From: G965261055 sp965261055 [NCBI: Fibrobacteria bacterium]
GTDB taxonomy: Bacteria > Fibrobacterota > Fibrobacteria > UBA11236
DNA length: 64,000 nt
Assembly (NCBI GenBank): GCA_965261055.1
Contig: OZ253440.1
Coordinates: 1,302,001-1,366,000, forward strand
Direction of reading: 5' to 3'
This document shows positions 10,470-64,000 of this stretch, piece by piece (position 1 is the first letter of the stretch; each line of letters begins with the position of its first letter). The translations under genes were made by a program, and so were the position numbers. A model generated the notes under the pieces. That model was not told where the DNA came from. It was given only the letters and a program-made list of their open reading frames with translations, and searched no databases.

Positions 10470-10935
10470 GCTTTTCAAAAATGTATGGATAAAAGTTATA
10501 GCATTACTTATAGAGGATTTATTGTTAGATTCTTTAATTTCATTCATTAAGACTATTTATAAAAGCATGAGTGTCGTATGCTTGTGTTACTACAAAAAAG
10601 AGTTTTATTTATTTTCTATTTGTAGAGGCTATAAAAATTTGCTCAATTTTTTTTTTGCATAATAAGTATAAGAAAACAAAAGGTTAAGTAATAACATCTT
10701 ATGTGCTGTTAAAGGAATTTTTATTTGTTAAACTACAGATTTTAATATAGTCGTATAAATTTTTTAAGATATAATCAGAGCTTATTTTTCTTTGTTTATC
10801 AAAAAAATACTTGTAATACTTATTTTTATTTAATTGTTTAATAACATTTATTATTAGTAGCAAATTTTGAAATATGAAAAAACTTAATGGGATAAGAATA
10901 TTTTTTATTTATAAAATTATGTATTTGTGGTTTTT

Positions 10936-11097
10936 TTAGGACATAGTCCATAAATCTTCGCGTGTTACCACATAATATGTTAATAACTTTAAAACAAAGT
11001 ACACCGCCACTACTACCCGAACTAAAACAGGTATTATGTAGATAAAGATACTTCCAAGTTCTTTTATTTGTGTTGCTCTAATCGGTGTTGTTTTCAT
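10936..11097 (-). pseudogene. short decayed frame after a DNA methyltransferase relic (possible restriction enzyme remnant)
   Basis: An ATG at 11097 preceded by AAGGA opens 53 codons (MKTTPIRATQIKELGSIF...). It overlaps the end of the C5-methyltransferase relic by 20 bp, an arrangement common in type II restriction-modification operons. Around 11035 the reading frame looks shifted: a second frame continues as SSGSSGGVLCFKVINILCG for roughly 60 codons. I do not recognise the protein. The restriction-enzyme idea comes only from position. Confidence 0.35.
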
Positions 11098-11186
11098 TAT
11101 CCTTCCTTAATTGTTGCATTGCTATAATATTTGAAATTCCTTCAGCTAATGCTGGCGGTACAGCATTTCCAATCTGTCTAATGTGA
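11078..11186 (-). pseudogene. C-terminal relic of a DNA (cytosine-5) methyltransferase
   Basis: The minus strand reads VHIRQIGNAVPPALAEGIS followed by IIAMQQLRKDN and a stop at 11078. RQIGNAVPP-LA is conserved motif X of C5-DNA methyltransferases of the Dcm type, normally the last conserved block of the enzyme. An in-frame TAG stands directly upstream of the fragment, and none of motifs I-IX is found nearby, so only the tail of the gene survives. Confidence 0.75.
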
Positions 11187-11243
11187 ACCTAAAAAATATA
11201 TGGTTATATAATCTCTAATAAATTGACTTAATTTGTTATGAAG

Positions 11244-11326
11244 GGTACAAGAATATAATATTATATTACCATAAAAATAATTTTTTAATAGTTACTATTA
11301 TTTTTCAGCCTAATTTTCCTTGTACC
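11244..11326. repeat. 83-bp segment bounded by GGTACAAG / CTTGTACC
   Basis: A perfect 8-bp inverted repeat flanks an AT-rich core that contains two smaller palindromes (ATATAATATTATAT, and AATAGT/ACTATT). It could be a miniature mobile element or a large hairpin. No other copy was noticed in the window. Confidence 0.3.
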
Positions 11327-11504
11327 ATTGTCAAGAATGAAAAAATGGCTACATAGTGACCATAAAATACGATTTTGCATAATTAAAAATGTTCATCATA
11401 TTAGTTATCAAGTATAAAAAGTGCTTTTAGAGGCTAAGGTTATCTAGTGAGTCTTAATTTAGATGTGTATGATATGTGTTTTACGGAGCATGAGAATAAG
11501 AAAT

Positions 11505-12781: not shown

Positions 12782-12871
12782 GTAAGATTGAGTTTAGATT
12801 AGCTAGAATTGAAAAATAGAATCTTTTTTAAGAATAGAACAGAAGGATTTAAAAATCCTATATTTGGATGT

Positions 12872-14617
12872 ATGGAAAAAATGATTGTAGAGTCACAATA
12901 TTGTAAATTGGATCTTCCTGATAGCGGTTTGCTATTAGAAAAAGGAGACAAAATAAAGGATGTCGTGGTATGTTACGAACAATATGGAGAAATGAACTCT
13001 ACTTGTAATAATATTATTTTAGTTTGTACGCCATTAACAATGGATGCTCACGCAGCGGGTTTCCATCTGAACGACTTAAAGTCTGTTGGTTGGTGGGATA
13101 GCTTAATCGGATCTAAAAAGTCTTTAGATACTGATCAATACTGTGTAATTGTGACGAATGTTTTCGGGGGGTGCCAAGGCACAACGGGACCATCATCGAT
13201 AAATCCGGAAACAAAAAAACCTTATGGAAATAGTTTTCCCAAAATTACGATGAAAGACATCGTTTTAGTTCAATACCTTTTAATAAAACAGTTAGGAGTC
13301 TCTAAACTTGAAGCTGTGATTGGTGGAAGTATGGGTGGTATGCAAGCTTTAGAATGGAGTGCACAATATTCTGAGATGGTTAAAAAATGTATTTGTATTG
13401 CTGCAGGGACATCTCTTTCTCCTCAAGGCTTGGGGTTTAAAGTTGTTAGTCGTCAAATTTTAGAAAATGATCCACAATATTTTGAAGGAAACTACTATCA
13501 GCATAAAACCAAACCAAAAAAAGGTTTAGCTTTAGCTAGAATGATTGGAATTATTACTTATCTTTCAAGTAGCTTGATGCAAACTAAATTTGGAAGAAGT
13601 ACCCATTCAGATAAACCTTTGAATGAAAAAGATTTCTCTACAAATTTTGAAGTTGAAAGATATTTAAATTATAATGCAGATAAATTTACGGAAAGGTTTG
13701 ATGCTAATTCATATTTGTATTTAACATATGCGGTGGATACTTTTGATCTAATTCAAAGTCATGGCTCATTAGAAAAGGCTTTTGGGGAATCTGAAACAAA
13801 ATTTTTATTTATCACTCTTTCTAGTGATTGGTTATTTCCTCCTCAACAATCAAAAATTTTATGTAAAGATTTGTTAAAATTAAAAAGGCACGTTTCTTTG
13901 GTTAATCTTCAATCTAATTATGGTCATGATGGATTCTTATTGGAAACAAAAAATATAGCACCTCTATTAAATGGGTTTGTTATGGGTGAGTCTCACAAAG
14001 GAAAAGAAAGAGAATCTGATACGGTTGTCCATACTTCCGATTTATTAAAATTTATTAAGCCTAAGTCTCATATTCTAGATGTTGGTTGTGGGGATAATTC
14101 TTTAATTGAAAAGTTATACCAAAAACAAAAAAATACAGGCTTTGGAATTGATATTGATTTTCAAAATGTAGGTCAATCATTGAGTAAAGGCTTGCCTATT
14201 ATTCACTCGGATGTAGATAAAGGTTTGAAAATGTTTAAGAATGGTTCTTTTGATTATGCTATTTTAAGTTACACAATGGAAGCCCTTAAAAAGCCTAGAG
14301 AAGTTTTACAAGAAATATTGCGTGTTGCAGAAAGAGGGATTGTTGTCTTTCCTAATTTTGGGTATATACAATATAGATTGTATTTATTTTTATTAGGTCG
14401 AATGCCTAAAACAACTTCTTTACCACATGAATGGTGGGAGACACCCAATATACATTTGTTTACTTATCAGGATTTTGAAAAATTGTGTCGGGTAGAAAAT
14501 CTGAAAATTGAAAAGAAAAAGTTTATTACAAAATCGGTTTTCTCAAAAATTTTAGTTTGGATTGGTTTTCCCAATTTAGGTGCAGAGTCTGTTATGGTAC
14601 AAGTTAAAAAAGATTAA
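12872..14617 (+). CDS. metX-metW: homoserine O-acetyltransferase MetX fused to MetW
   Basis: One frame of about 581 residues joining two methionine-pathway proteins. Residues 1 to about 375 are an alpha/beta-hydrolase acyltransferase: nucleophile Ser153 in VIGGSMGGMQALEW and the C-terminal YGHDGF motif with the Asp-His part of the triad. From about 385 a SAM-methyltransferase-like MetW domain follows, with ILDVGCGDNSL, VVFPNFGYIQYR and HEWWETPNIHLF. MetX and MetW are usually separate neighbours. MetW is thought to support MetX activity. The start is uncertain: ATG 12872 and 12881 both fit, and a TTG at 12809 would add non-conserved residues. A perfect AGGATTT/AAATCCT repeat lies at 12844-12859 just upstream. 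Confidence 0.92.
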   Translation: MEKMIVESQYCKLDLPDSGLLLEKGDKIKDVVVCYEQYGEMNSTCNNIILVCTPLTMDAHAAGFHLNDLKSVGWWDSLIGSKKSLDTDQYCVIVTNVFGGCQGTTGPSSINPETKKPYGNSFPKITMKDIVLVQYLLIKQLGVSKLEAVIGGSMGGMQALEWSAQYSEMVKKCICIAAGTSLSPQGLGFKVVSRQILENDPQYFEGNYYQHKTKPKKGLALARMIGIITYLSSSLMQTKFGRSTHSDKPLNEKDFSTNFEVERYLNYNADKFTERFDANSYLYLTYAVDTFDLIQSHGSLEKAFGESETKFLFITLSSDWLFPPQQSKILCKDLLKLKRHVSLVNLQSNYGHDGFLLETKNIAPLLNGFVMGESHKGKERESDTVVHTSDLLKFIKPKSHILDVGCGDNSLIEKLYQKQKNTGFGIDIDFQNVGQSLSKGLPIIHSDVDKGLKMFKNGSFDYAILSYTMEALKKPREVLQEILRVAERGIVVFPNFGYIQYRLYLFLLGRMPKTTSLPHEWWETPNIHLFTYQDFEKLCRVENLKIEKKKFITKSVFSKILVWIGFPNLGAESVMVQVKKD

Positions 14618-18567: not shown

Positions 18568-18797
18568 TATTAAATATTTAATCATTCTTCTTATGGTTAC
18601 AAAATTTACATTCTGTATCTTATTGGATTAGTGGCTTCTTTTGTTATTTGGTGTTTCAATCGTTAGTTGGCCAAATATTCGGTTTTTTCATCATTAAAGG
18701 TAACAAAAGTATAGGTGCGATTGGATGCTGAGGCTTATTGAAGTGTAATGGTGATTATACTGTGTTGTGTATTCGTGTTGCTAATCATTATTTTTGT

Positions 18798-19129
18798 TTA
18801 TTTTATTAAGTTAATTGGTATTAGGATACTTGTTACCAAATCTAATGGACAATTATTTCCTGTAGTTTTCACATTAAATAACGGTGATCTTGCTATGGCA
18901 TCATTACCTCTTAAGGCAATAACTTGGTAATTATTTCCTTTAGATATGCGATGTTCAAATATCAGTGTATTAACAAATTTTTCTTCAAATAAGTAGTATC
19001 TGTAATAGAAATACTATTAAAGGTGCGATTTTTTATTTTCAGAAAGATTACAACATCACTAGAATTAATTGTGTCATTTAAAGAAATAGATATAGAGGAA
19101 ACAACACCAACCATCACTATTACAAACAT
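18798..19129 (-). pseudogene. decayed exported beta-sandwich-like protein
   Basis: From ATG 19129 the frame encodes a hydrophobic start (MFVIVMVGVVSSISISLND) and stops at 18962. A one-base shift near codon 48 restores a continuous frame (EEKFVNTLIFEHRISKGNN, then VIALRGNDAIARSPLFNV) to a stop at 18798. The alternating pattern with G-x-x-Y and a terminal S-x-x-F-x-V resembles Ig-like domains of surface proteins of the Ser/Thr-rich Kre9/KNH type. This is a weak comparison by eye. Confidence 0.45.
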
Positions 19130-19227
19130 TATAATATGAGAAAAATATTAGAGCTAAAAAATAATTTTAATAACATTGCATCATCTTCCTTCTTTGACCT
19201 TCGTTTAGTTGTGTTTCAAAACAAGTA

Positions 19228-19600
19228 TTAGCATTTTTTTTCTAGAATATTTTTAATCCAAGAAACTTTAGTATTAATATAAGTCGCTCTGACTTTCCCT
19301 TCTCTGGCTGTAAAACGTTTATTTAGATTACCATAAAAGGATATTTTGCAATATCTTTCAATTCAAACAATCAAAACTAGAGTATACAGAAGTTACTGCA
19401 ATATTAAAACTATCTTTTTGTATCCATGGACCATCAAAATCACCAGCACATGTTCTGTATCCATATGCTCGATCTACAATTTGGTACGATCTAAATCAAT
19501 TTATATAAACTTTTTTATGTCTGAACACTCTCCCACTAGTATTAGCAGAATAAGAATCATATTCGTTATCTCAAATTATATTACAACGGACATTATCCAT
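19228..19600 (-). pseudogene. unidentified decayed gene
   Basis: An ATG at 19600 opens a frame that keeps protein-like composition (segments YSANTSGRVFRHKKVYIN, FRSYQIVDRAYGYRTC and GDFDGPWIQKDSFNIAVTSV) but is broken by three in-frame TGA codons, then shifts frame near 19340 into NKRFTAREGKVRATYINTKV before a stop at 19228. I do not recognise the family. Confidence 0.4.
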
Positions 19601-19724
19601 AGTGTCAAACTATAAATAAAATAATATTGATTATCTCATCTATAGATATATTACTCAAATGAATGAGTTATACAAGATGAAAAGCTTTATTTTTCTAGTA
19701 CTTTACAGTTCTTAGATTAAGAGA

Positions 19725-22702: not shown

Positions 22703-22939
22703 ATGTCAGAAGATTTAGGTAAAGAAATTGCAGAAGTTGCTAGTGATAAGCTAGGTGTTGAAGTAAGTACAGTTAAGCTTGAGTCACGTTTTGTAGAAGA
22801 TTTAGGTGCAGATTCTTTAGATCAAGTTGAGTTAATTATGGCTTTAGAAGACAAATTTGATATTGAAATACCTGATGAAGATGCTGAAAAAATTCTGACT
22901 GTTGAAAACGCAGTTGAATATGTTAAAAACAAACAGTAA
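22703..22939 (+). CDS. acpP: acyl carrier protein
   Basis: A 78-residue acidic four-helix protein with the [10 protein letters not shown] motif, whose serine (about residue 37) takes the phosphopantetheine arm. It carries acyl chains during fatty acid synthesis. The start is ATG 22703, with TTTGGAG 5 bp upstream. In-frame codons further upstream are not ACP-like. fabF, which usually follows acpP, is absent. A decayed rnc follows instead. Confidence 0.97.
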
Positions 22940-22972: not shown

Positions 22973-23691
22973 TTGCTTTATCTGTTTCAAACAGCTAAAA
23001 ATTGTCTTTATTCTTATAACCAATTGTATTTTGAATTACAGGAAACGATTGGAGATTTTTTTGCCAAAAATTCTTCTTTAGAGCAAGCGTTATCGTATCG
23101 CTCAAGAACTAAAACAAACAAAAAGTCTTTGATGTTACATTTGAATGAAAGATTAGAATGTTAGGGGATACAGTATTGGGTTTGGCTGTGTCTGAAATCA
23201 TATCTTATATTTCCAGAGGAGAGTGATGAAGGTTGTCTTTTTCAAAAAAAAATCAATTTTAGTGAGTTCTAAAATCTTATCTTCTGTTGTGCTGAGTCTA
23301 AATGGACTTTATATCGTTATATAAATGTTAATATGAACGAGATTACTGGGAAAATAAAAGAGAATTTACTGGCAGATGGTTTTGAAGCCTTGTTGGGGAT
23401 GATCTATTTAGATGGAGGTTTAAGACTCTTTCAGAAAATTATTCAAAAAGTGATTTTAGAGCCTATGAATGGCTTTTGTAAACTTGACTTTGTGAAGAGT
23501 TGTCAAAGTTTGGTTATAGTAGCAGGCTCAATCCAAATCTAATTTAATTGATTTTAAAATATTAGAAAGCTTGAGGAGGATCATTGTAAAGTATTTTTTG
23601 TTGGTTTGTTTTTAAATCAAAAGATACACTCTCAGTCTTCTGGATTGTTTTAAAAAAAGCGGATCAAAAAGTGGCACAACAATTTTATTAA
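22973..23691 (+). pseudogene. rnc: ribonuclease III pseudogene
   Basis: RNase III can be followed through at least four breaks. The first block ends SSLEQALSYRS...HLNERLE and hits a TAG. After a one-base shift the signature continues as LGDTVLGLAVSEII, then a TGA. A further block reads EGCLSKKKSILVSSKI in another frame. ENLLADGFEALLGMIYLDGG (from 23333) carries the second catalytic region, and the dsRNA-binding domain tail survives as CKVFFVGLFLNQKIHSQS and KKADQKVAQQFY, the latter ending at 23691. The order acpP-rnc is ancestral in many bacteria. Several independent lesions make a sequencing error unlikely. A working copy elsewhere cannot be excluded. Confidence 0.88.
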
Positions 23692-23711: not shown

Positions 23712-24509
23712 ATGGAATGGAGAATTTTACCTTTTAACTCATATACAGGTGCAGAAAATATGGCAATTGATGAAGCTGTATTTGAAGCACAAGAGAAAAA
23801 AAAATCACCTCCTACAATTCGCTTTTATACTTGGAAAAAGCCCTGTTTGAGCTTGGGGTACTTTCAAAAAGCTTTTAAAGAATTAGATTTAAATCAGGTA
23901 AAGAAAAAATCTATTGATGTGGTTAAGCGTATGACAGGTGGTCGAGTTGTTTTACATATAGATGAATTAACATATAGTGTAAGTGCAACTGTTTCGTTAT
24001 TGTCTTGGTGTAAGACACAACGCTTGTCATACGAATTTATCTCTAAGTCACTTTTGAAAACTCTACAAGGTATGAATTTAGAATTAAATTTAAGTCGTAG
24101 TGATCTAGTAGAACGGTCGGAAAAAAAAACGATGAGCCCTTGCTTTTCCTCTTCTGCTCGTAATGAAGTTGTGTTTGAAAATAAGAAATTAATAGGTTCT
24201 GCTCAAAAAAGGAGTGCCTTTGCTTTTTTGCAGCATGGTTCAATTTTGTGTTCAAATAAAAGTAAAACAGTGATTGATTATTTGAATCTTGTACCAGAAG
24301 ATAGAAACTGTGCAAGATTAGAATTAGCTAAGAAAGCAACTTGTTTAGAAGAAATATTGAATCAACCCATAAATATTTTAGAATTACATGAATTAATATT
24401 TAAGAATTTTTTAAATAACATGGGAATAATAAAATATAAAATTGGAGAATTGACTACTTTTGAAGAAGTAATAGTAAATGAAAAGTTGTCAAAGTCTAGT
24501 TTGTTCTAG
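23712..24509 (+). CDS. lipoate-protein ligase / octanoyltransferase (LplA/LipM family)
   Basis: A 265-residue biotin/lipoate A/B ligase-fold protein. The typical WRILPFNSYTGAENMAIDEA start, RFYTWKKPCLSLGYFQ and the MTGGRVVLHIDELTYS segment (RRTGGR equivalent, about residue 78) are present. A later KKLIGSAQKR (about 160) carries the conserved lysine, followed by LQHGSIL. It attaches lipoate or octanoate to E2 and GcvH proteins. The LipM-like glycine loop and length favour octanoyltransferase, but LplA cannot be separated by eye. It comes 20 bp after the rnc relic. Confidence 0.88.
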   Translation: MEWRILPFNSYTGAENMAIDEAVFEAQEKKKSPPTIRFYTWKKPCLSLGYFQKAFKELDLNQVKKKSIDVVKRMTGGRVVLHIDELTYSVSATVSLLSWCKTQRLSYEFISKSLLKTLQGMNLELNLSRSDLVERSEKKTMSPCFSSSARNEVVFENKKLIGSAQKRSAFAFLQHGSILCSNKSKTVIDYLNLVPEDRNCARLELAKKATCLEEILNQPINILELHELIFKNFLNNMGIIKYKIGELTTFEEVIVNEKLSKSSLF

Positions 24510-33675: not shown

Positions 33676-33891
33676 CTATTTGTATGCTTTGCCTTGTATA
33701 ATCGTTATTATAGCCTTTATAATAATAGAAGTTTCGTTATTATAGTATTTATTCGTTCCTCTTTTACTGCTATATGGATTAGTATTACCATAATACGAAT
33801 AATGACCAGTAACAGTGCTATTTGAATTAATTCTATAATGGGGATGCCAAAATTTTATCTGCTTCTGGCATGTCATTAGATTGGATATCAA
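33676..33891 (-). pseudogene. fragment of a small secreted protein with the PHYR...GNTNPY motif
   Basis: A 71-codon frame containing HPHYRINSNSTV and GNTNPYSSKRGTN. This matches the widespread C-terminal motif of small secreted or phage-associated proteins (V-x-P-H-Y-R-T/S...G-N-x-N-P-Y-T-G-K-x-G-T). The usual upstream part (G-Y-x-R-K-D-G-T-x-V) is missing and replaced by unrelated codons, so this is probably a relic. Confidence 0.45.
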
Positions 33892-33988
33892 TAATAAAAC
33901 ATGTTTTAAGAGAGTTATACCGGTGTGCTTAACTTTTTTTAGAATCTATTTAACTACTTTTTATGTTTACTTAAACAAGAACAGTAGA

Positions 33989-34849
33989 ATGAATAGAAAT
34001 GATTTTATTTTAGAACCAACAGCTTCAATGGTTGTAGAAATGTCTAAACCCATATACCATAATACTCCTTTATTGAAAGAATTTATTGATGCCTTTGATT
34101 TACGCAGTGGAAAAGAATTAGTAGAAGAATGCAGAAAGATCACGCCTCTCTGTGATCAAATTTTATTAAATCGCAAATTTTGGGTACACGATCAAGTAGT
34201 GGAGGTTTTAGATAGACATTCGCAAGCTATGCAAATTGTTCTTTTAGCTGGAGGAAAAACGCCTTTGTCTTTTCAATGCCTATTAAGTCGCTCAGAAAGA
34301 ATTAAACATATTTACGAAGTCGATCTCACTAGCCTATCCGATAAAGAAGAACTTTCTCAAAAACTTAACCCTAAATTAGCTCAAAAAATTTCTTTTTTGC
34401 AATATGATTTAAATCAAAATGATTGGTTAGAAGCAATCATTGACATAGGCTTTGACAAAATAACGCCCACTGTATTTATCATGGAAGGAATTTCTTATTA
34501 TTTAACTTCTCAATGTTTACAAAATGTGATTAAAACGATACAACAAGAGACATCTCAAGCCTTGATTTGTATTGATTTTAAATACCCTAAAGAGAATAAC
34601 GCAAACACAGAAAACGAAAAAGCACAAAACCAAATTTTTGAGTTTATTCAAAAAGTCTGTCAGCTAGACTTTATCACCTCTTATACACCATCTAGTTTAG
34701 AAAATCTATTGAAAGGATTAGCTACAGATTTTCAATATACCGCAATGGATGAAGTAGAAAAAAAGAGAACTGGCACGCAACATTTTTTTTCTATCCAAGA
34801 TAGAGAACTCATTGGTCTTTTGTGTTTTTCGGTAATGGCTTTGTCATAA
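33989..34849 (+). CDS. LCM-family SAM-dependent O-methyltransferase
   Basis: About 286 residues from the ATG at 33989. Earlier in-frame codons overlap a relic and look non-coding. The fold of the leucine-carboxyl/polyketide O-methyltransferase family is recognisable: ITPLCDQILLNRKFWVHDQVV (abridged, about 50), IVLLAGGKTPLSFQCL (SAM loop region, about 75), YEVDLTSLSDKE (about 105) and TVFIMEGISYYLT (about 160), where E-G-x-x-Y-Y is the family signature. The substrate is unknown. Codons use C and G at third positions more than neighbours, and the gene stands alone between relic-bearing gaps, which would fit a recent arrival. Confidence 0.82.
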   Translation: MNRNDFILEPTASMVVEMSKPIYHNTPLLKEFIDAFDLRSGKELVEECRKITPLCDQILLNRKFWVHDQVVEVLDRHSQAMQIVLLAGGKTPLSFQCLLSRSERIKHIYEVDLTSLSDKEELSQKLNPKLAQKISFLQYDLNQNDWLEAIIDIGFDKITPTVFIMEGISYYLTSQCLQNVIKTIQQETSQALICIDFKYPKENNANTENEKAQNQIFEFIQKVCQLDFITSYTPSSLENLLKGLATDFQYTAMDEVEKKRTGTQHFFSIQDRELIGLLCFSVMALS

Positions 34850-35297: not shown

Positions 35298-36329
35298 TTA
35301 ACTTTGATTTGTTTTATAGACTAATTGCCCACAAGCACCACCAATATCCCGACCAAGGTTTTTTCGAATTGTTACTAAAAGCCCATGTTCTATAAGGCGA
35401 TTTTTAAAGTTCTTAACATTGTGCTTAGAGCTTTGTTCGTGTTTAGATTCTGTTTGATTGTAAACAATTAGGTTGATTTGGAATAGATAATGTAAAGAAA
35501 AAGAACGAATATAATTAGCTAGATGAAGAGCATCTTGTATAGAATCGTTTTCACCTTGTATTAAAATATACTCAATGAAAATTTTGCGTTTATTGTTTAG
35601 AGTTATTTCTTCTAAGGTTGAATGTAAGTCTTCTAAGTTGTAACGATTATTAATCGGCATCAGTTTTTGTCTAGATTCATTTGTCGCACTATGTAAGGAA
35701 ACGGCTAAATTAACTTGAGGAAAGGTGTTGGCAAGTTCTTTTAGTTCAGGTATAAGTCCTGAAGTTGAAACTGAAATATGACGAGATGCAAAACTAAAAA
35801 AATCTGGGTTTGTTAATGCTTCTAAACTATTGAAAATCGCTTGTTTATTATGTAGTGGTTCTCCCATTCCCATGTAAACAATGTTGTTTAATTTATTCAG
35901 TTTGTATTCTTTAATGTATTGTAGCCAAAATAAAACTTGGTCTGTAATTTCTTCACTTGTGAGATGGCGGATTAAGCCCATAGTTCCTGTTGCACAAAAT
36001 GTACAACCTAAGGCACAGCCGACTTGAGAACTGACGCACACTGTCCACAATCCTGTTTTCGGGCTCATTAACACAGTTTCAATTCTATTTCCATCAGAGA
36101 GTTTGAGAAGAGCTTTGTAGCAATTTTTTTCTTTTGAAATAAATACTTTTTCTACTGTAAATTGTAGAATAGATTGATTTTCAAGTTTAGCTCTTATGTC
36201 TTTTTTCAGAGTTGAAAGGGATGTAAAGTTTGAGATGTGCTCTTGGAAGATCGCTCTGCGTAATTGTTTATAGCGAAAAGGTTCTATATTTAGTTTTTCC
36301 CATAAGGTTTGCAGTCTTTCTGAGTCCAT
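35298..36329 (-). CDS. rlmN: dual-specificity rRNA/tRNA adenine-C2 methyltransferase RlmN
   Basis: A 343-residue radical-SAM methylase for 23S rRNA A2503 and tRNA A37. The cluster motif CALGCTFCATG (C-x3-C-x2-C, about residue 105) is intact, as are MGMGEPLHN (about 150), VSTSGLIPEL and the C-terminal IRKNLGRDIGGACGQL with the second catalytic cysteine. Full length. It follows gph on the same strand with a 39-bp gap. Confidence 0.97.
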   Translation of the reverse strand: MDSERLQTLWEKLNIEPFRYKQLRRAIFQEHISNFTSLSTLKKDIRAKLENQSILQFTVEKVFISKEKNCYKALLKLSDGNRIETVLMSPKTGLWTVCVSSQVGCALGCTFCATGTMGLIRHLTSEEITDQVLFWLQYIKEYKLNKLNNIVYMGMGEPLHNKQAIFNSLEALTNPDFFSFASRHISVSTSGLIPELKELANTFPQVNLAVSLHSATNESRQKLMPINNRYNLEDLHSTLEEITLNNKRKIFIEYILIQGENDSIQDALHLANYIRSFSLHYLFQINLIVYNQTESKHEQSSKHNVKNFKNRLIEHGLLVTIRKNLGRDIGGACGQLVYKTNQS

Positions 36330-59541: not shown

Positions 59542-61668
59542 ATGAGAAACAATCTAAGGTTTTTAATTGTTAGTGTTGGCTTGTTTTTTTTGTTTCAAAA
59601 TGCATATTCGCAGTTGCCTTCTTTGACTTTAGCTCCAGGAGCTAGGCAATTAGGAATGGGAGAAGCTTTTACAGGATTAGCAAACGATGCATATGCAGCT
59701 TTTTTTAACCCCGCAGGTCTTGCTTTTGCTCCCCTTTCCGATGAATGGTCTTTAGAAAGAAAGTATTTGCCAAGCAAATTTTCTTTATTAGTTTCACAGT
59801 CTAAATCTAATTTTTTTTCTCAAGAAGAAGTATGGTCATCTCAAGGTGATACTTTACTTTTTTTTGATGGGAAAGTATGGAATGATTATCATTTGCAGTT
59901 TGTTTTTAGACAGGATCAGTTATCACAAGTTGTTGAAAAATACACAGGAGTCGTTCCAAACCTTGATTCTTTGATTAAGATGGTTTCTAATTTTAACAAT
60001 TGGGATTCTTTGAGCTTAATTAAGCAAGTTAAATTACCTTATAATCTTTTGTTTAGTGGAGAAAAAATACAAGCAGTAGAGATTGATAAGAATCAGAGAG
60101 TTTGGGTGGGAACAAATAAAGGTTTGTATAGATTTAATGGGCAGAGATGGAAAAATTTGTCTGTCGCTAAAGTTTTTCAATCTTTTGATACATTATTTGT
60201 GACTTCGTTGTCTGTAGAAAAAGGAAATGTTTGGATAGGGACCCGACAGGGGTTGTATCGTTACCGTAAAGGAAGATTTTCTCGTCGAGGTGCTTTGCTT
60301 TTACCACAACAACATATAACTTCTATCGCTACACATGCAAAAGATGAGTTTGTTTATGTTTCTTATTTGGGAGGTATCGCTCGTTATCGATCACCAAACA
60401 ATAAAAATGAGAAAGGACGTTGGAAATTATTTTCTGAGCAAGATGGAATATATTCGGCGATTATCTTAGATATGACTTTAGACGCGAAAGGGAATCTATG
60501 GGTTTTACATCCCAATGCTGTTTCACATTATAATTTATTAGGATGGAAAAGAACAATTTTTAAAAACTATAGTCTATCAGGTATCTCTATAGACAAGAAT
60601 GATCATGTTTGGGTTGCTACAAATGAAGGTGTTTGGAGAAATCGTTATAATCATAAGCAAAACAAAAATAAATGGACACATTATCATACTGGAAATGCAT
60701 TATCTAAAAACCGTAGTTTAGCTGTAGCTTCTTCAGGAGATAACACATGGTTTATAACTCAAGCGGGAGTTGAAAAATATTCGGCAGCTCGTTCCCAAGT
60801 TGGTTTTTTCTTTGAGAATCTACTTCCTGCTTTGCAAATTGATAATTTATTTCACGCTTTTTTAGTAAGCACTTTTCCTATAAAAGAATGGGGAACAATA
60901 GGTGGGTTTATAAATTTTCTTTCTTTAGGTTCAATCACTTCTGAAAATTTGAATCAAGCTTCACCTGGGATAGAAATGGTGGCAGCTTTGTCTTACGGAA
61001 CAAAATTGACTGAAACTTCAAGTATTGGATTAAATTTTAAATTTATTTATGTGTCTTTAGGAGCAGGGTCAATTGCGAATGGATCAGATGGTATAGCGAC
61101 TAGTTATGCATTTGATTTAGCTTTTTTGCTTAAGCATGTTGGAATAAAAAATTTTCACTTTGGTATTAATTTTCAAAATATAGGACCAGGTATATCTTTT
61201 GTGGAGCAGTCACAAGAAGATCCATTGCCGTTTACTTGGAAGTTGGGACTAGCTTATGAAGTATTCAAAACTTCTAACCATGAATTAAATTTGGTCGCTG
61301 ACTTGAATAGAGAGGCTGTTTTTGAGAACAGATCGCAAGCTGAGGTCACTCCTATTTATATAGGTGCATGGAGGGATTTAATAGAACCTTTTGGTAGAAA
61401 TGATAGTCGTAACAGTAGCCTATCCTCTGTTTTGAATCAAAATATTAGAAAGAGTATTTATAATTTAGGAGCAGAGTATATCTACGCACAAGTCGTTGCT
61501 CTTAGAAGTGGCTATTTACTTGATATAGTTGGTCAAAGAAACGAATTGGATCTAGGAGTTGGTTTTTTTGTTTCTAATATTTTTAAAGTAAATGGAGCGT
61601 TCTTAAGAGATTTAGGTTCTGGAGTTAGGACAGGTCAATTTAGAGTTGATTTATTGTTTACTTTTTAA
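59542..61668 (+). CDS. PorV/UPF0164-type outer-membrane protein with inserted two-component-regulator propeller
   Basis: A 708-residue exported protein. A signal peptide (to about residue 23, NAYSQ) is followed by the PorV/UPF0164 signature APGARQLGMGEAFTGLANDA and AAFFNPAGLA (about 31-60). Then, instead of continuing the beta-barrel, residues about 180-415 form repeated propeller blades (RVWVGTNKGLYRFNGQRW, VWIGTRQGLYRYRKGRF, LWVLHPNAVSHY, VWVATNEGVWRNR). The barrel pattern resumes from about 440 (LLPALQIDNLFHAFL onward) to a C-terminal phenylalanine (RVDLLFTF), typical of outer-membrane proteins. PorV relatives belong to or resemble type IX secretion components, but here the role is unproven. 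Confidence 0.85.
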   Translation: MRNNLRFLIVSVGLFFLFQNAYSQLPSLTLAPGARQLGMGEAFTGLANDAYAAFFNPAGLAFAPLSDEWSLERKYLPSKFSLLVSQSKSNFFSQEEVWSSQGDTLLFFDGKVWNDYHLQFVFRQDQLSQVVEKYTGVVPNLDSLIKMVSNFNNWDSLSLIKQVKLPYNLLFSGEKIQAVEIDKNQRVWVGTNKGLYRFNGQRWKNLSVAKVFQSFDTLFVTSLSVEKGNVWIGTRQGLYRYRKGRFSRRGALLLPQQHITSIATHAKDEFVYVSYLGGIARYRSPNNKNEKGRWKLFSEQDGIYSAIILDMTLDAKGNLWVLHPNAVSHYNLLGWKRTIFKNYSLSGISIDKNDHVWVATNEGVWRNRYNHKQNKNKWTHYHTGNALSKNRSLAVASSGDNTWFITQAGVEKYSAARSQVGFFFENLLPALQIDNLFHAFLVSTFPIKEWGTIGGFINFLSLGSITSENLNQASPGIEMVAALSYGTKLTETSSIGLNFKFIYVSLGAGSIANGSDGIATSYAFDLAFLLKHVGIKNFHFGINFQNIGPGISFVEQSQEDPLPFTWKLGLAYEVFKTSNHELNLVADLNREAVFENRSQAEVTPIYIGAWRDLIEPFGRNDSRNSSLSSVLNQNIRKSIYNLGAEYIYAQVVALRSGYLLDIVGQRNELDLGVGFFVSNIFKVNGAFLRDLGSGVRTGQFRVDLLFTF

Positions 61669-62791: not shown

Positions 62792-62869
62792 ATGATTAAA
62801 GTAATGAGGAATGTAGTTTTTTTATTCTTATTATTTTTATTCTTATTATTCTTGTTGCCAAAGTTATAG
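62792..62869 (+). other. 25-codon leader-like frame with a hydrophobic core
   Basis: ATG 62792 opens MIKVMRNVVFLFLLFLFLLF followed by LLPKL and a TAG. The hydrophobic core is coded by two 15-bp near-repeats of TTTTTATTCTTATTA. It looks like a signal peptide without a mature part, directly upstream of the octamer array. Either a chance product of the repeat or the 5' end of a lost exported protein. Confidence 0.25.
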
Positions 62870-62885
62870 AATATTGTTATATTTT

Positions 62886-62944
62886 CCAGCACTCCAGCAC
62901 TCCAGCACTCCAGCACTCCAGCACTCCAGCACTCCAGCACTCCA
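62886..62944 (+). repeat. seven tandem copies of an 8-bp repeat (CCAGCACT) before a lipoprotein gene
   Basis: Seven perfect CCAGCACT units plus a partial CCA end 8 bp before the ATG of the Big2 lipoprotein at 62953. Eight is not a multiple of three and the array has no stop in any forward frame. The array occupies the 5' untranslated/ribosome-site region, where changes in copy number could alter expression. Confidence 0.95.
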
Positions 62945-62952
62945 AGACACTT

Positions 62953-63514
62953 ATGCTTAAATTATTTATATTTATATTTACAACGTTAACCATTTATAAT
63001 TGTGGCGATACAGTCGACCCATCAATTCCAGTAACTAGTGTGAGTGTTCATCCTCCTGAAGTAAGTTTAGTAGCGGGAAATATAGACACAGTAGAAGCGA
63101 CAGTAGAACCATCTGATGCGACAGATAAAACATTGACATGGTCAAGTAGTGATTCATTAATAGCGACAGTTGATAACGGTGTTATCACAGGAGAATCAGT
63201 GGGAGAAGTGAGAATAATAGTGACCTCTACAGTAGATGACTCTAAAGTAGATACAGTAACGCTCACAGTAACACCATCAAGTGTAATTGGTGTGAAGTGT
63301 TGATCATTCTACAGTAGCAATAGCAGTGGGAAATACAGACACATTCGTAGCCGAGGTATTACCAGCTAATGCTTCAGATAAAAGAGTGACATGGTCAAGT
63401 AGTGATCAAGCCATAGCGACAGTATCAGTATCATCTACTGGTATAGTAACAGGAGTATTAGTAGGGACAGTGGACATCATAGTCACAACAACAGATGGTA
63501 ATTTTAAAATTTGA
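62953..63514 (+). pseudogene. Big2 (bacterial Ig-like) lipoprotein gene with a frameshift
   Basis: The frame begins with a short signal ending in LTIYNC17, a probable lipobox, so a surface lipoprotein. A full Big2 domain follows (VTSVSVHPPEVSLVAGN, LTWSSSDSLIATVDNGVITG, VGEVRIIVTST). At about 63290 an extra A in GGTGTGAAGTGTT breaks the frame (GVK-stop instead of GVSVD). In the shifted frame a second domain continues (VDHSTVAIAVGNTDTFVA, VTWSSSDQAIATVSVSS, VGTVDIIVTTTDGNFKI) to a stop at 63514. A sequencing error at one base would give one longer two-domain protein. The second domain is itself short at its end. Confidence 0.7.
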
Positions 63515-63599: not shown

Positions 63600-64000
63600 A
63601 TGTATAAATTATTTATAATGACAATGACAATGATGATATGGAATTGTGGAGGTACTGTCACTACTTCAACAGCAGTAAGTGTAACGGGTGTGAGTATTGA
63701 TACTTCTGGAATAAGTTTAGAAGTAGGATCGACAGCAACAGTCTTAGCGACAGTAGAACCCGCTAATGCGACAAATAAAACAGTGGCTTGGTTAACAAGT
63801 GATGCTCAAGTAGCGACAGTTGATTCAAACGGTGTTATAACAGCAGAAGGAGAAGGCACAGCGGATATAACCGTAACGACAATCGACGGATTTCACACAG
63901 CGGAAGTAACCGTAACAGTAACAGCTGCACCAATCGGAACAGTAAGTGTAAGTAGTGTGAGTGTTGATAATTCTACAATAAGTATAGTAGATGGATTGAC
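63600..64000 (+). CDS. Big2-domain lipoprotein, partial (cut by right edge)
   Basis: 133 codons seen from ATG 63600 with no stop before the window ends. The signal sequence MYKLFIMTMTMMIWNC gives a likely lipobox cysteine at residue 16. One full Big2 domain (VTGVSIDTSGISLEVGS, AWLTSDAQVATVDSNGVITA, GTADITVTTIDGFHTAEVTV) is followed by the start of another (VSSVSVDNSTISIVDGL). The codons are richer in GCG, ACA and GTA than the surrounding AT-rich genes. It is clearly a paralogue of the neighbour at 62953. Probably a long multi-domain surface adhesin-type protein; its C-terminus and any secretion signal lie outside the window. Confidence 0.88.
   Translation, partial: MYKLFIMTMTMMIWNCGGTVTTSTAVSVTGVSIDTSGISLEVGSTATVLATVEPANATNKTVAWLTSDAQVATVDSNGVITAEGEGTADITVTTIDGFHTAEVTVTVTAAPIGTVSVSSVSVDNSTISIVDGL

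What the first reader, a model, noticed from the sequence alone, without database searches (positions are those of the whole stretch)
22973..23691. RNase III gene reduced to a multi-lesion pseudogene after acpP
Five recognisable RNase III blocks, including parts of both catalytic regions and the dsRNA-binding domain, lie in different frames with stops between. rnc is nearly universal and is central to rRNA processing, so its decay is surprising unless a second copy or another nuclease compensates.
Basis: partly seen in the sequence, partly recalled or inferred. Interest (0 to 1): 0.6.

Follow-up and report, generated by a model that had tools for sequence, protein, structure and literature searches.

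The report
Broken RNase III gene beside acpP
In this unnamed bacterium the gene for the RNA-cutting enzyme RNase III is still recognisable in its usual place but broken by several small insertions and deletions; this is probably a real and fairly recent gene loss, notable but not unheard of, because many bacteria can live without the enzyme.

Summary
Window 23033-23679, between acpP and a lipoate-ligase gene, is the orthologue of rnc. Its frame-tolerant alignment scores 191; 100 dinucleotide shuffles average 23 with a maximum of 31. The frame changes seven times, and four changes survive severe penalties. None of the 212 codons read is a stop. Of 30 other window proteins tested, 29 span at least 85% of a family model.

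No close genome is held; the nearest shares about 62% SecA identity. In the phylum, 155 of 167 genomes have an RNase III match. Of 14 near genomes, 14 hold exactly one RNase III-domain gene and 14 hold RNase E/G.

The wreck looks young. Codon usage still looks coding. The catalytic core keeps 20 of 24 invariant residues, the dsRNA-binding domain 4 of 15. The protein is far more diverged than expected (33% against about 60%), yet has no stops. So it probably evolved quickly while still translated, and lost its frame recently.

Untestable here: a local consensus error, and an intact copy elsewhere. Natural absence of RNase III is known (Deinococcus radiodurans), so surprise is moderate.

The parts
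23033..23679 (+). frame-disrupted rnc (RNase III) orthologue, catalytic domain followed by dsRNA-binding domain
   Evidence: frame-tolerant profile alignment, score 191 vs shuffle maximum 30.9; tblastn with each of the 13 reference proteins hits the locus, E 2e-4 to 2e-13
23033..23158 (+). block 1: N-terminal part up to the first signature motif (NERLE)
   Evidence: alignment
23158..23290 (+). cluster of four frame changes (near 23160, 23200, 23243, 23290), robust to the strictest penalty
23333..23542 (+). longest surviving RNase III ORF (69 aa), with the second catalytic motif (LADGFEALLG)
   Evidence: Pfam PF14622 E=1.5e-5, PF00636 E=2.5e-4, both below the curated cut-off
23471..23679 (+). 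degraded dsRNA-binding domain, three further and less certain frame changes (near 23525, 23575, 23646)
   Evidence: 31.9 vs maximum 24.8 of 200 shuffles; 4 of 15 invariant residues kept
22703..22939 (+). acpP, upstream neighbour with open frame
   Evidence: Pfam PP-binding E=2e-13; acpP found in 14 of 16 relatives' rnc loci
23712..24509 (+). lipoate-protein ligase-like gene, downstream neighbour with open frame
   Evidence: Pfam LplA-B_cat E=1e-32; found in 9 of 16 relatives' rnc loci

Best explanation
This is the orthologous, once functional rnc gene of a bacterium distantly related to the Fibrobacterota, recently inactivated by several small insertions and deletions. Shown: homology, position, frame changes, neighbours with open frames, and open single-copy orthologues in relatives. 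Inferred: RNase III first came under relaxed selection, with fast protein divergence and the dsRNA-binding domain degrading most. Frame-destroying indels then fixed, too recently for stop codons or large deletions to build up. If no other copy exists, rRNA and dsRNA processing would fall to other nucleases such as RNase E/G, which 14 of 14 near relatives carry.
For: Alignment score 191 vs shuffle maximum 30.9. Four frame changes persist at the harshest penalty tried. Gene order: acpP in 14 of 16 relatives' rnc loci, the lipoate-ligase neighbour in 9 of 16, the transporter-protein neighbour in 3 of 16. RNase III match in 155 of 167 genomes of the phylum, 'stops inside: none' in every row listed, the list being cut. 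Identity to G154 is 33%, where six intact relatives show 58-60% to G154; for two of those six SecA identity to G154 was measured, 62% and 61%, like the window's 62%. Coding signature kept: codon score 0.094 vs 0.106 +/- 0.045 for 46 other window ORFs, against -0.109 and -0.063 in the shifted phases. No large deletion over profile positions 23-239. Of 30 other proteins tested, 29 span at least 85% of a family model.
Against: Seven indels with no stop codon is an unusual mix for neutral decay: with 40 neutral substitutions the simulated chance of no stop is 0.10, with 60 it is 0.013. The catalytic core looks functional apart from the frame: with L109 left out of the reference set, the window keeps 26 of 31 invariant residues and the intact but divergent L109 keeps 27 of 34. 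Reads and sister strains are unavailable, so a local consensus error is not excluded. The C-terminal frame changes are less certain than the first four.
Confidence: 0.75

Rival explanations
1. Local consensus error: a stretch of roughly 490 bases (23158-23646) was covered by poor reads, and the real gene is intact but divergent.
For: The frame changes all lie within about 490 bases; no in-frame stop; coding signature and most catalytic-domain invariants kept. A patch that short could fall inside one gene by chance.
Against: Of 30 other proteins tested, 29 span at least 85% of a family model. Only two of seven frame changes lie at long homopolymers, where pyrosequencing and nanopore errors typically gather (recalled). 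The aligned protein is also divergent in the stretches between lesions, which errors of 1-2% would not cause (inference).
Confidence: 0.15
2. Replacement: an intact RNase III acquired elsewhere in the genome made this copy dispensable. This is compatible with the best explanation and concerns the cause.
For: Fast divergence before frame loss fits redundancy; no whole genome is held to exclude it. One of the 155 phylum genomes with a match has two matches.
Against: Of 14 near genomes, 14 hold exactly one RNase III-domain gene. A scan of both strands of the window finds no second copy: the best score elsewhere is 34 against 191.
Confidence: 0.3
3. The gene is still used, its product made through several recoding events or transcript slippage.
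For: No stop codons in the aligned frames, coding-like codon usage, most catalytic-domain invariants kept.
Against: Seven frame changes in 650 bases, only two at slippery runs; I recall no recoding system that handles this many; the dsRNA-binding domain is degraded.
Confidence: 0.02
4. Chance resemblance in AT-rich intergenic DNA.
For: None found.
Against: Score 191 vs a maximum of 30.9 in 100 shuffles; conserved gene order.
Confidence: 0.003

Closest known systems
Bacterial class I RNase III (rnc; TIGR02191, PF14622/PF00636 plus dsRBD)
   Same: Same gene position, both catalytic signature motifs and traces of the dsRNA-binding domain
   Different: No continuous reading frame; dsRNA-binding domain keeps 4 of 15 invariant residues; far more diverged than expected
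Natural absence of RNase III in Deinococcus radiodurans (passages in PMC8708148 and PMC3531473)
   Same: A bacterium apparently without its usual RNase III, if no other copy exists
   Different: There the gene is lacking; here it is caught part-way through decay, in a different phylum
Ordinary bacterial pseudogenes with short indels (PMC2916853, passages read)
   Same: Short indels that shift the frame are named there as one of the two commonest lesion types, and the authors say their method can detect pseudogenes with more than ten frameshifts
   Different: The target is a nearly universal RNA-processing gene; premature stop codons, the other common type, are missing in the aligned frames

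Membership tests
Bacterial RNase III (rnc) | Homology to the RNase III catalytic domain | tested here: met
   178.8 vs shuffle maximum 35.4 for the N-terminal part; Pfam hit below cut-off on the longest ORF
Bacterial RNase III (rnc) | Signature motifs with acidic catalytic residues | tested here: met
   NERLE..GD and D..EA are still encoded, with a frame change inside the first motif; 20 of 24 invariant catalytic-domain residues kept. Which residues are catalytic is recalled
Bacterial RNase III (rnc) | C-terminal dsRNA-binding domain | tested here: inconclusive
   traces significant (31.9 vs 24.8 maximum of 200 shuffles), but 4 of 15 invariant residues kept
Bacterial RNase III (rnc) | One continuous open reading frame | tested here: not met
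   seven frame changes, four robust
Bacterial RNase III (rnc) | dsRNA-cleaving activity | not testable with these tools
   needs expression and assay
Pseudogene of rnc | Orthologous position with intact copies in relatives | tested here: met
   gene order; open frames in relatives: 16 of 16 genomes, 155 of 167 with a match
Pseudogene of rnc | Lesions are in the organism, not the assembly | not testable with these tools
   no reads, no second assembly, no own genome
Mini-III (RNase III domain without dsRBD) | Short protein lacking a dsRBD, separate from rnc (definition recalled) | tested here: not met
   dsRBD traces present and position is that of rnc

The most novel reading that the evidence does not exclude
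A bacterial lineage caught in the act of losing its only RNase III: the dsRNA-binding domain decayed first and the catalytic domain's frame was lost last. It would be a natural RNase III-free bacterium outside Deinococcus, in which the fate of rRNA leader-trailer helices and antisense-silenced toxins could be followed.
Probability: 0.4. Interest if true: 0.55.

Novelty: new member of a known kind. Interest (0 to 1): 0.35.

Why it matters
If real and uncompensated, this is a rare natural experiment on what a cell does without RNase III, with the steps of the loss still readable. It would predict changed rRNA leader-trailer helices, reliance on RNase E/G, and absence of toxin systems silenced by antisense RNA. 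If a second copy exists, it is an ordinary replaced gene.

Tried and rejected
Own-genome search for a second rnc: no genome is held. Viral-contig scans with two neighbouring genes (2 of 8 scans used): no relative found. A search of plasmid records with the SecA DNA gave one partial match, covering 6% of the query.

A generally error-prone assembly was considered and rejected: of the 46 ORFs I listed as genes, 30 were tested, and 29 of the 30 span at least 85% of a family model, many of those matches being below the model's own cut-off. The exception is the methyltransferase at 33881-34849, which matches 68% of its model. Sixteen of the 46 were not tested this way. Other decayed genes in the larger gaps: of eight typed translated pieces, Pfam found domains over the curated cut-off only in the two Big_2 pieces; a third gave one weak hit (E=0.01, below cut-off) and five gave none.

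Slow neutral decay as the source of the extra protein divergence was tested by simulation and rejected. Starting from three intact relatives (300 runs each), the mean is 4.7 to 9.9 stops, and no stop occurred in 0, 0 and 1% of runs. The model assumes a 25% GC equilibrium and uses relatives as stand-ins for the ancestor.

Frame return: the long blocks lie in one frame and the short excursions in others. I judged this about a 1 in 8 coincidence and built nothing on it. The block check used wrong offsets for several blocks and was replaced.

Full report
Where it lies. The window has 30.6% GC. No whole genome is held for it. Its ProS best matches, at 54%, a MAG titled Fibrobacter sp. (best of the 80 loci kept from 487), and its Ffh matches that same genome best of 15 tested, at 55%. 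RlmN is less telling: its best-scoring match in the phylum has 37% identity and the hit list shows no near relative. So the window comes from a bacterium distantly related to the Fibrobacterota, and no near relative is on hand. The phylum name is inferred from the record title.

The gene. Between acpP (22703-22939) and a lipoate-ligase gene (23712-24509) the only ORFs of 50 aa or more have 63 and 69 aa. A frame-tolerant alignment to a profile of 13 intact RNase III proteins covers 23033-23679 and profile positions 23-239 of 253, with score 191. Shuffled controls reach at most 30.9 in 100 trials. Ordinary tblastn with each of the 13 reference proteins also hits the locus, with E between 2e-4 and 2e-13. 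The longest surviving ORF gives Pfam RNase III hits below the curated cut-offs; the 63-aa ORF gives none.

Lesions. At the default penalty there are seven frame changes, near 23160, 23200, 23243, 23290, 23525, 23575 and 23646. At the three stricter settings the first four remain and the alignment stops at 23470; the loosest gives nine. None of the 212 codons read is a stop. Two frame changes lie at long homopolymers (A9 near 23243; T4 followed by A7 near 23646), and the others do not.

Orthology. In the relatives' rnc loci, acpP is found in 14 of 16 (in L103 with another ORF between), the lipoate-ligase neighbour in 9 of 16, and the transporter substrate-binding protein, which follows the ligase in the window, in 3 of 16, among them G154. 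Some of these loci are cut short. Sixteen of 16 genomes searched have one PF14622 match in an open frame. In the phylum 155 of 167 genomes have an RNase III match, and every row listed reads 'stops inside: none', though the list was cut. The 12 misses are comparable to the 11 of 167 misses for RlmN, so incomplete assemblies may explain them; true losses among them were not ruled out. Of 14 near genomes (G154-G167, picked), 14 have exactly one RNase III-domain gene, and 14 have RNase E/G.

Age and order of decay. G154 shares 62% SecA with G160 and 61% with G158, and 58-60% rnc with six relatives including those two. The window shares 62% SecA with G154 but only 70 of 210 aligned rnc residues, 33%. 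The window lineage is somewhat fast in general (54% SecA to G160), which I judge not enough to explain this. Of residues invariant in the 13 references, the window keeps 20 of 24 in the catalytic domain but only 4 of 15 in the dsRNA-binding domain. Leaving L109 out of the reference set for a like-for-like comparison, the window keeps 26 of 31 and 8 of 21, and the divergent intact L109 keeps 27 of 34 and 17 of 23. In the aligned frames, codon usage scores 0.094, near the mean of 46 other ORFs (0.106, SD 0.045) and far from the shifted phases (-0.109 and -0.063). Third-position GC is 0.269 against a mean of 0.219 (SD 0.032), about 1.6 SD high, a mild sign of relaxation or of chance. If the extra divergence had arisen after the frame was lost, about 5 to 10 stops would be expected, with a chance of none of 0.01 or less. 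The simplest order is fast evolution under relaxed selection while still translated, then recent frame loss.

Error or biology. Of 30 other window proteins tested, 29 span at least 85% of a family model and one methyltransferase matches 68%. Within what was tested, lesions are confined to rnc, except for one possible frame change in a repeat protein near 63300. A patch of about 490 bases of poor consensus could still fall inside one gene, so I keep a 15% chance for artefact.

Known background. [quoted passage not shown] PMC3531473 (passages read) states that the essential role in B. subtilis is not its rRNA function but silencing of prophage toxins, and that D. radiodurans naturally lacks the gene. 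PMC2916853 (passages read) names short indels and premature stops as two of the most common pseudogene lesions, and warns that sequencing errors in homopolymers produce false pseudogenes. PMC12641178 (passages read) reports that the Candidate Phyla Radiation bacteria, with reduced genomes, preserve rnc. In the listings of searches for natural rnc pseudogenes or losses, I saw no title announcing one; those listings were capped and most papers were not opened. The library holds only open-licence papers, so this does not prove that none exists.

Verdict. A real, probably recent rnc pseudogene is the best reading. Whether the cell lacks RNase III altogether is open.

Noticed in passing
window 62800-63511 and 63600-64000: A lipoprotein-like gene with Big_2 repeats is split by one frame change near 63296-63300, followed by an open ORF that looks similar by eye.
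   Followed up: partly
window 12809-14617: A single ORF fuses nearly full-length MetX (homoserine acetyltransferase) and MetW.
   Followed up: no
window 35298-36329: An RlmN-type methyltransferase just passes the RlmN cut-off but scores higher, below cut-off, with Cfr-family models.
   Followed up: no
window 59542-61668: A PorV-family outer-membrane domain is preceded by about 400 residues that match no NCBIfam model at the threshold used (E 1e-10).
   Followed up: no
window 10470-11504 and 18568-19724: Two gaps of about 1 kb without long ORFs; six translated pieces gave no Pfam domain over its cut-off. Possibly older gene remains.
   Followed up: partly
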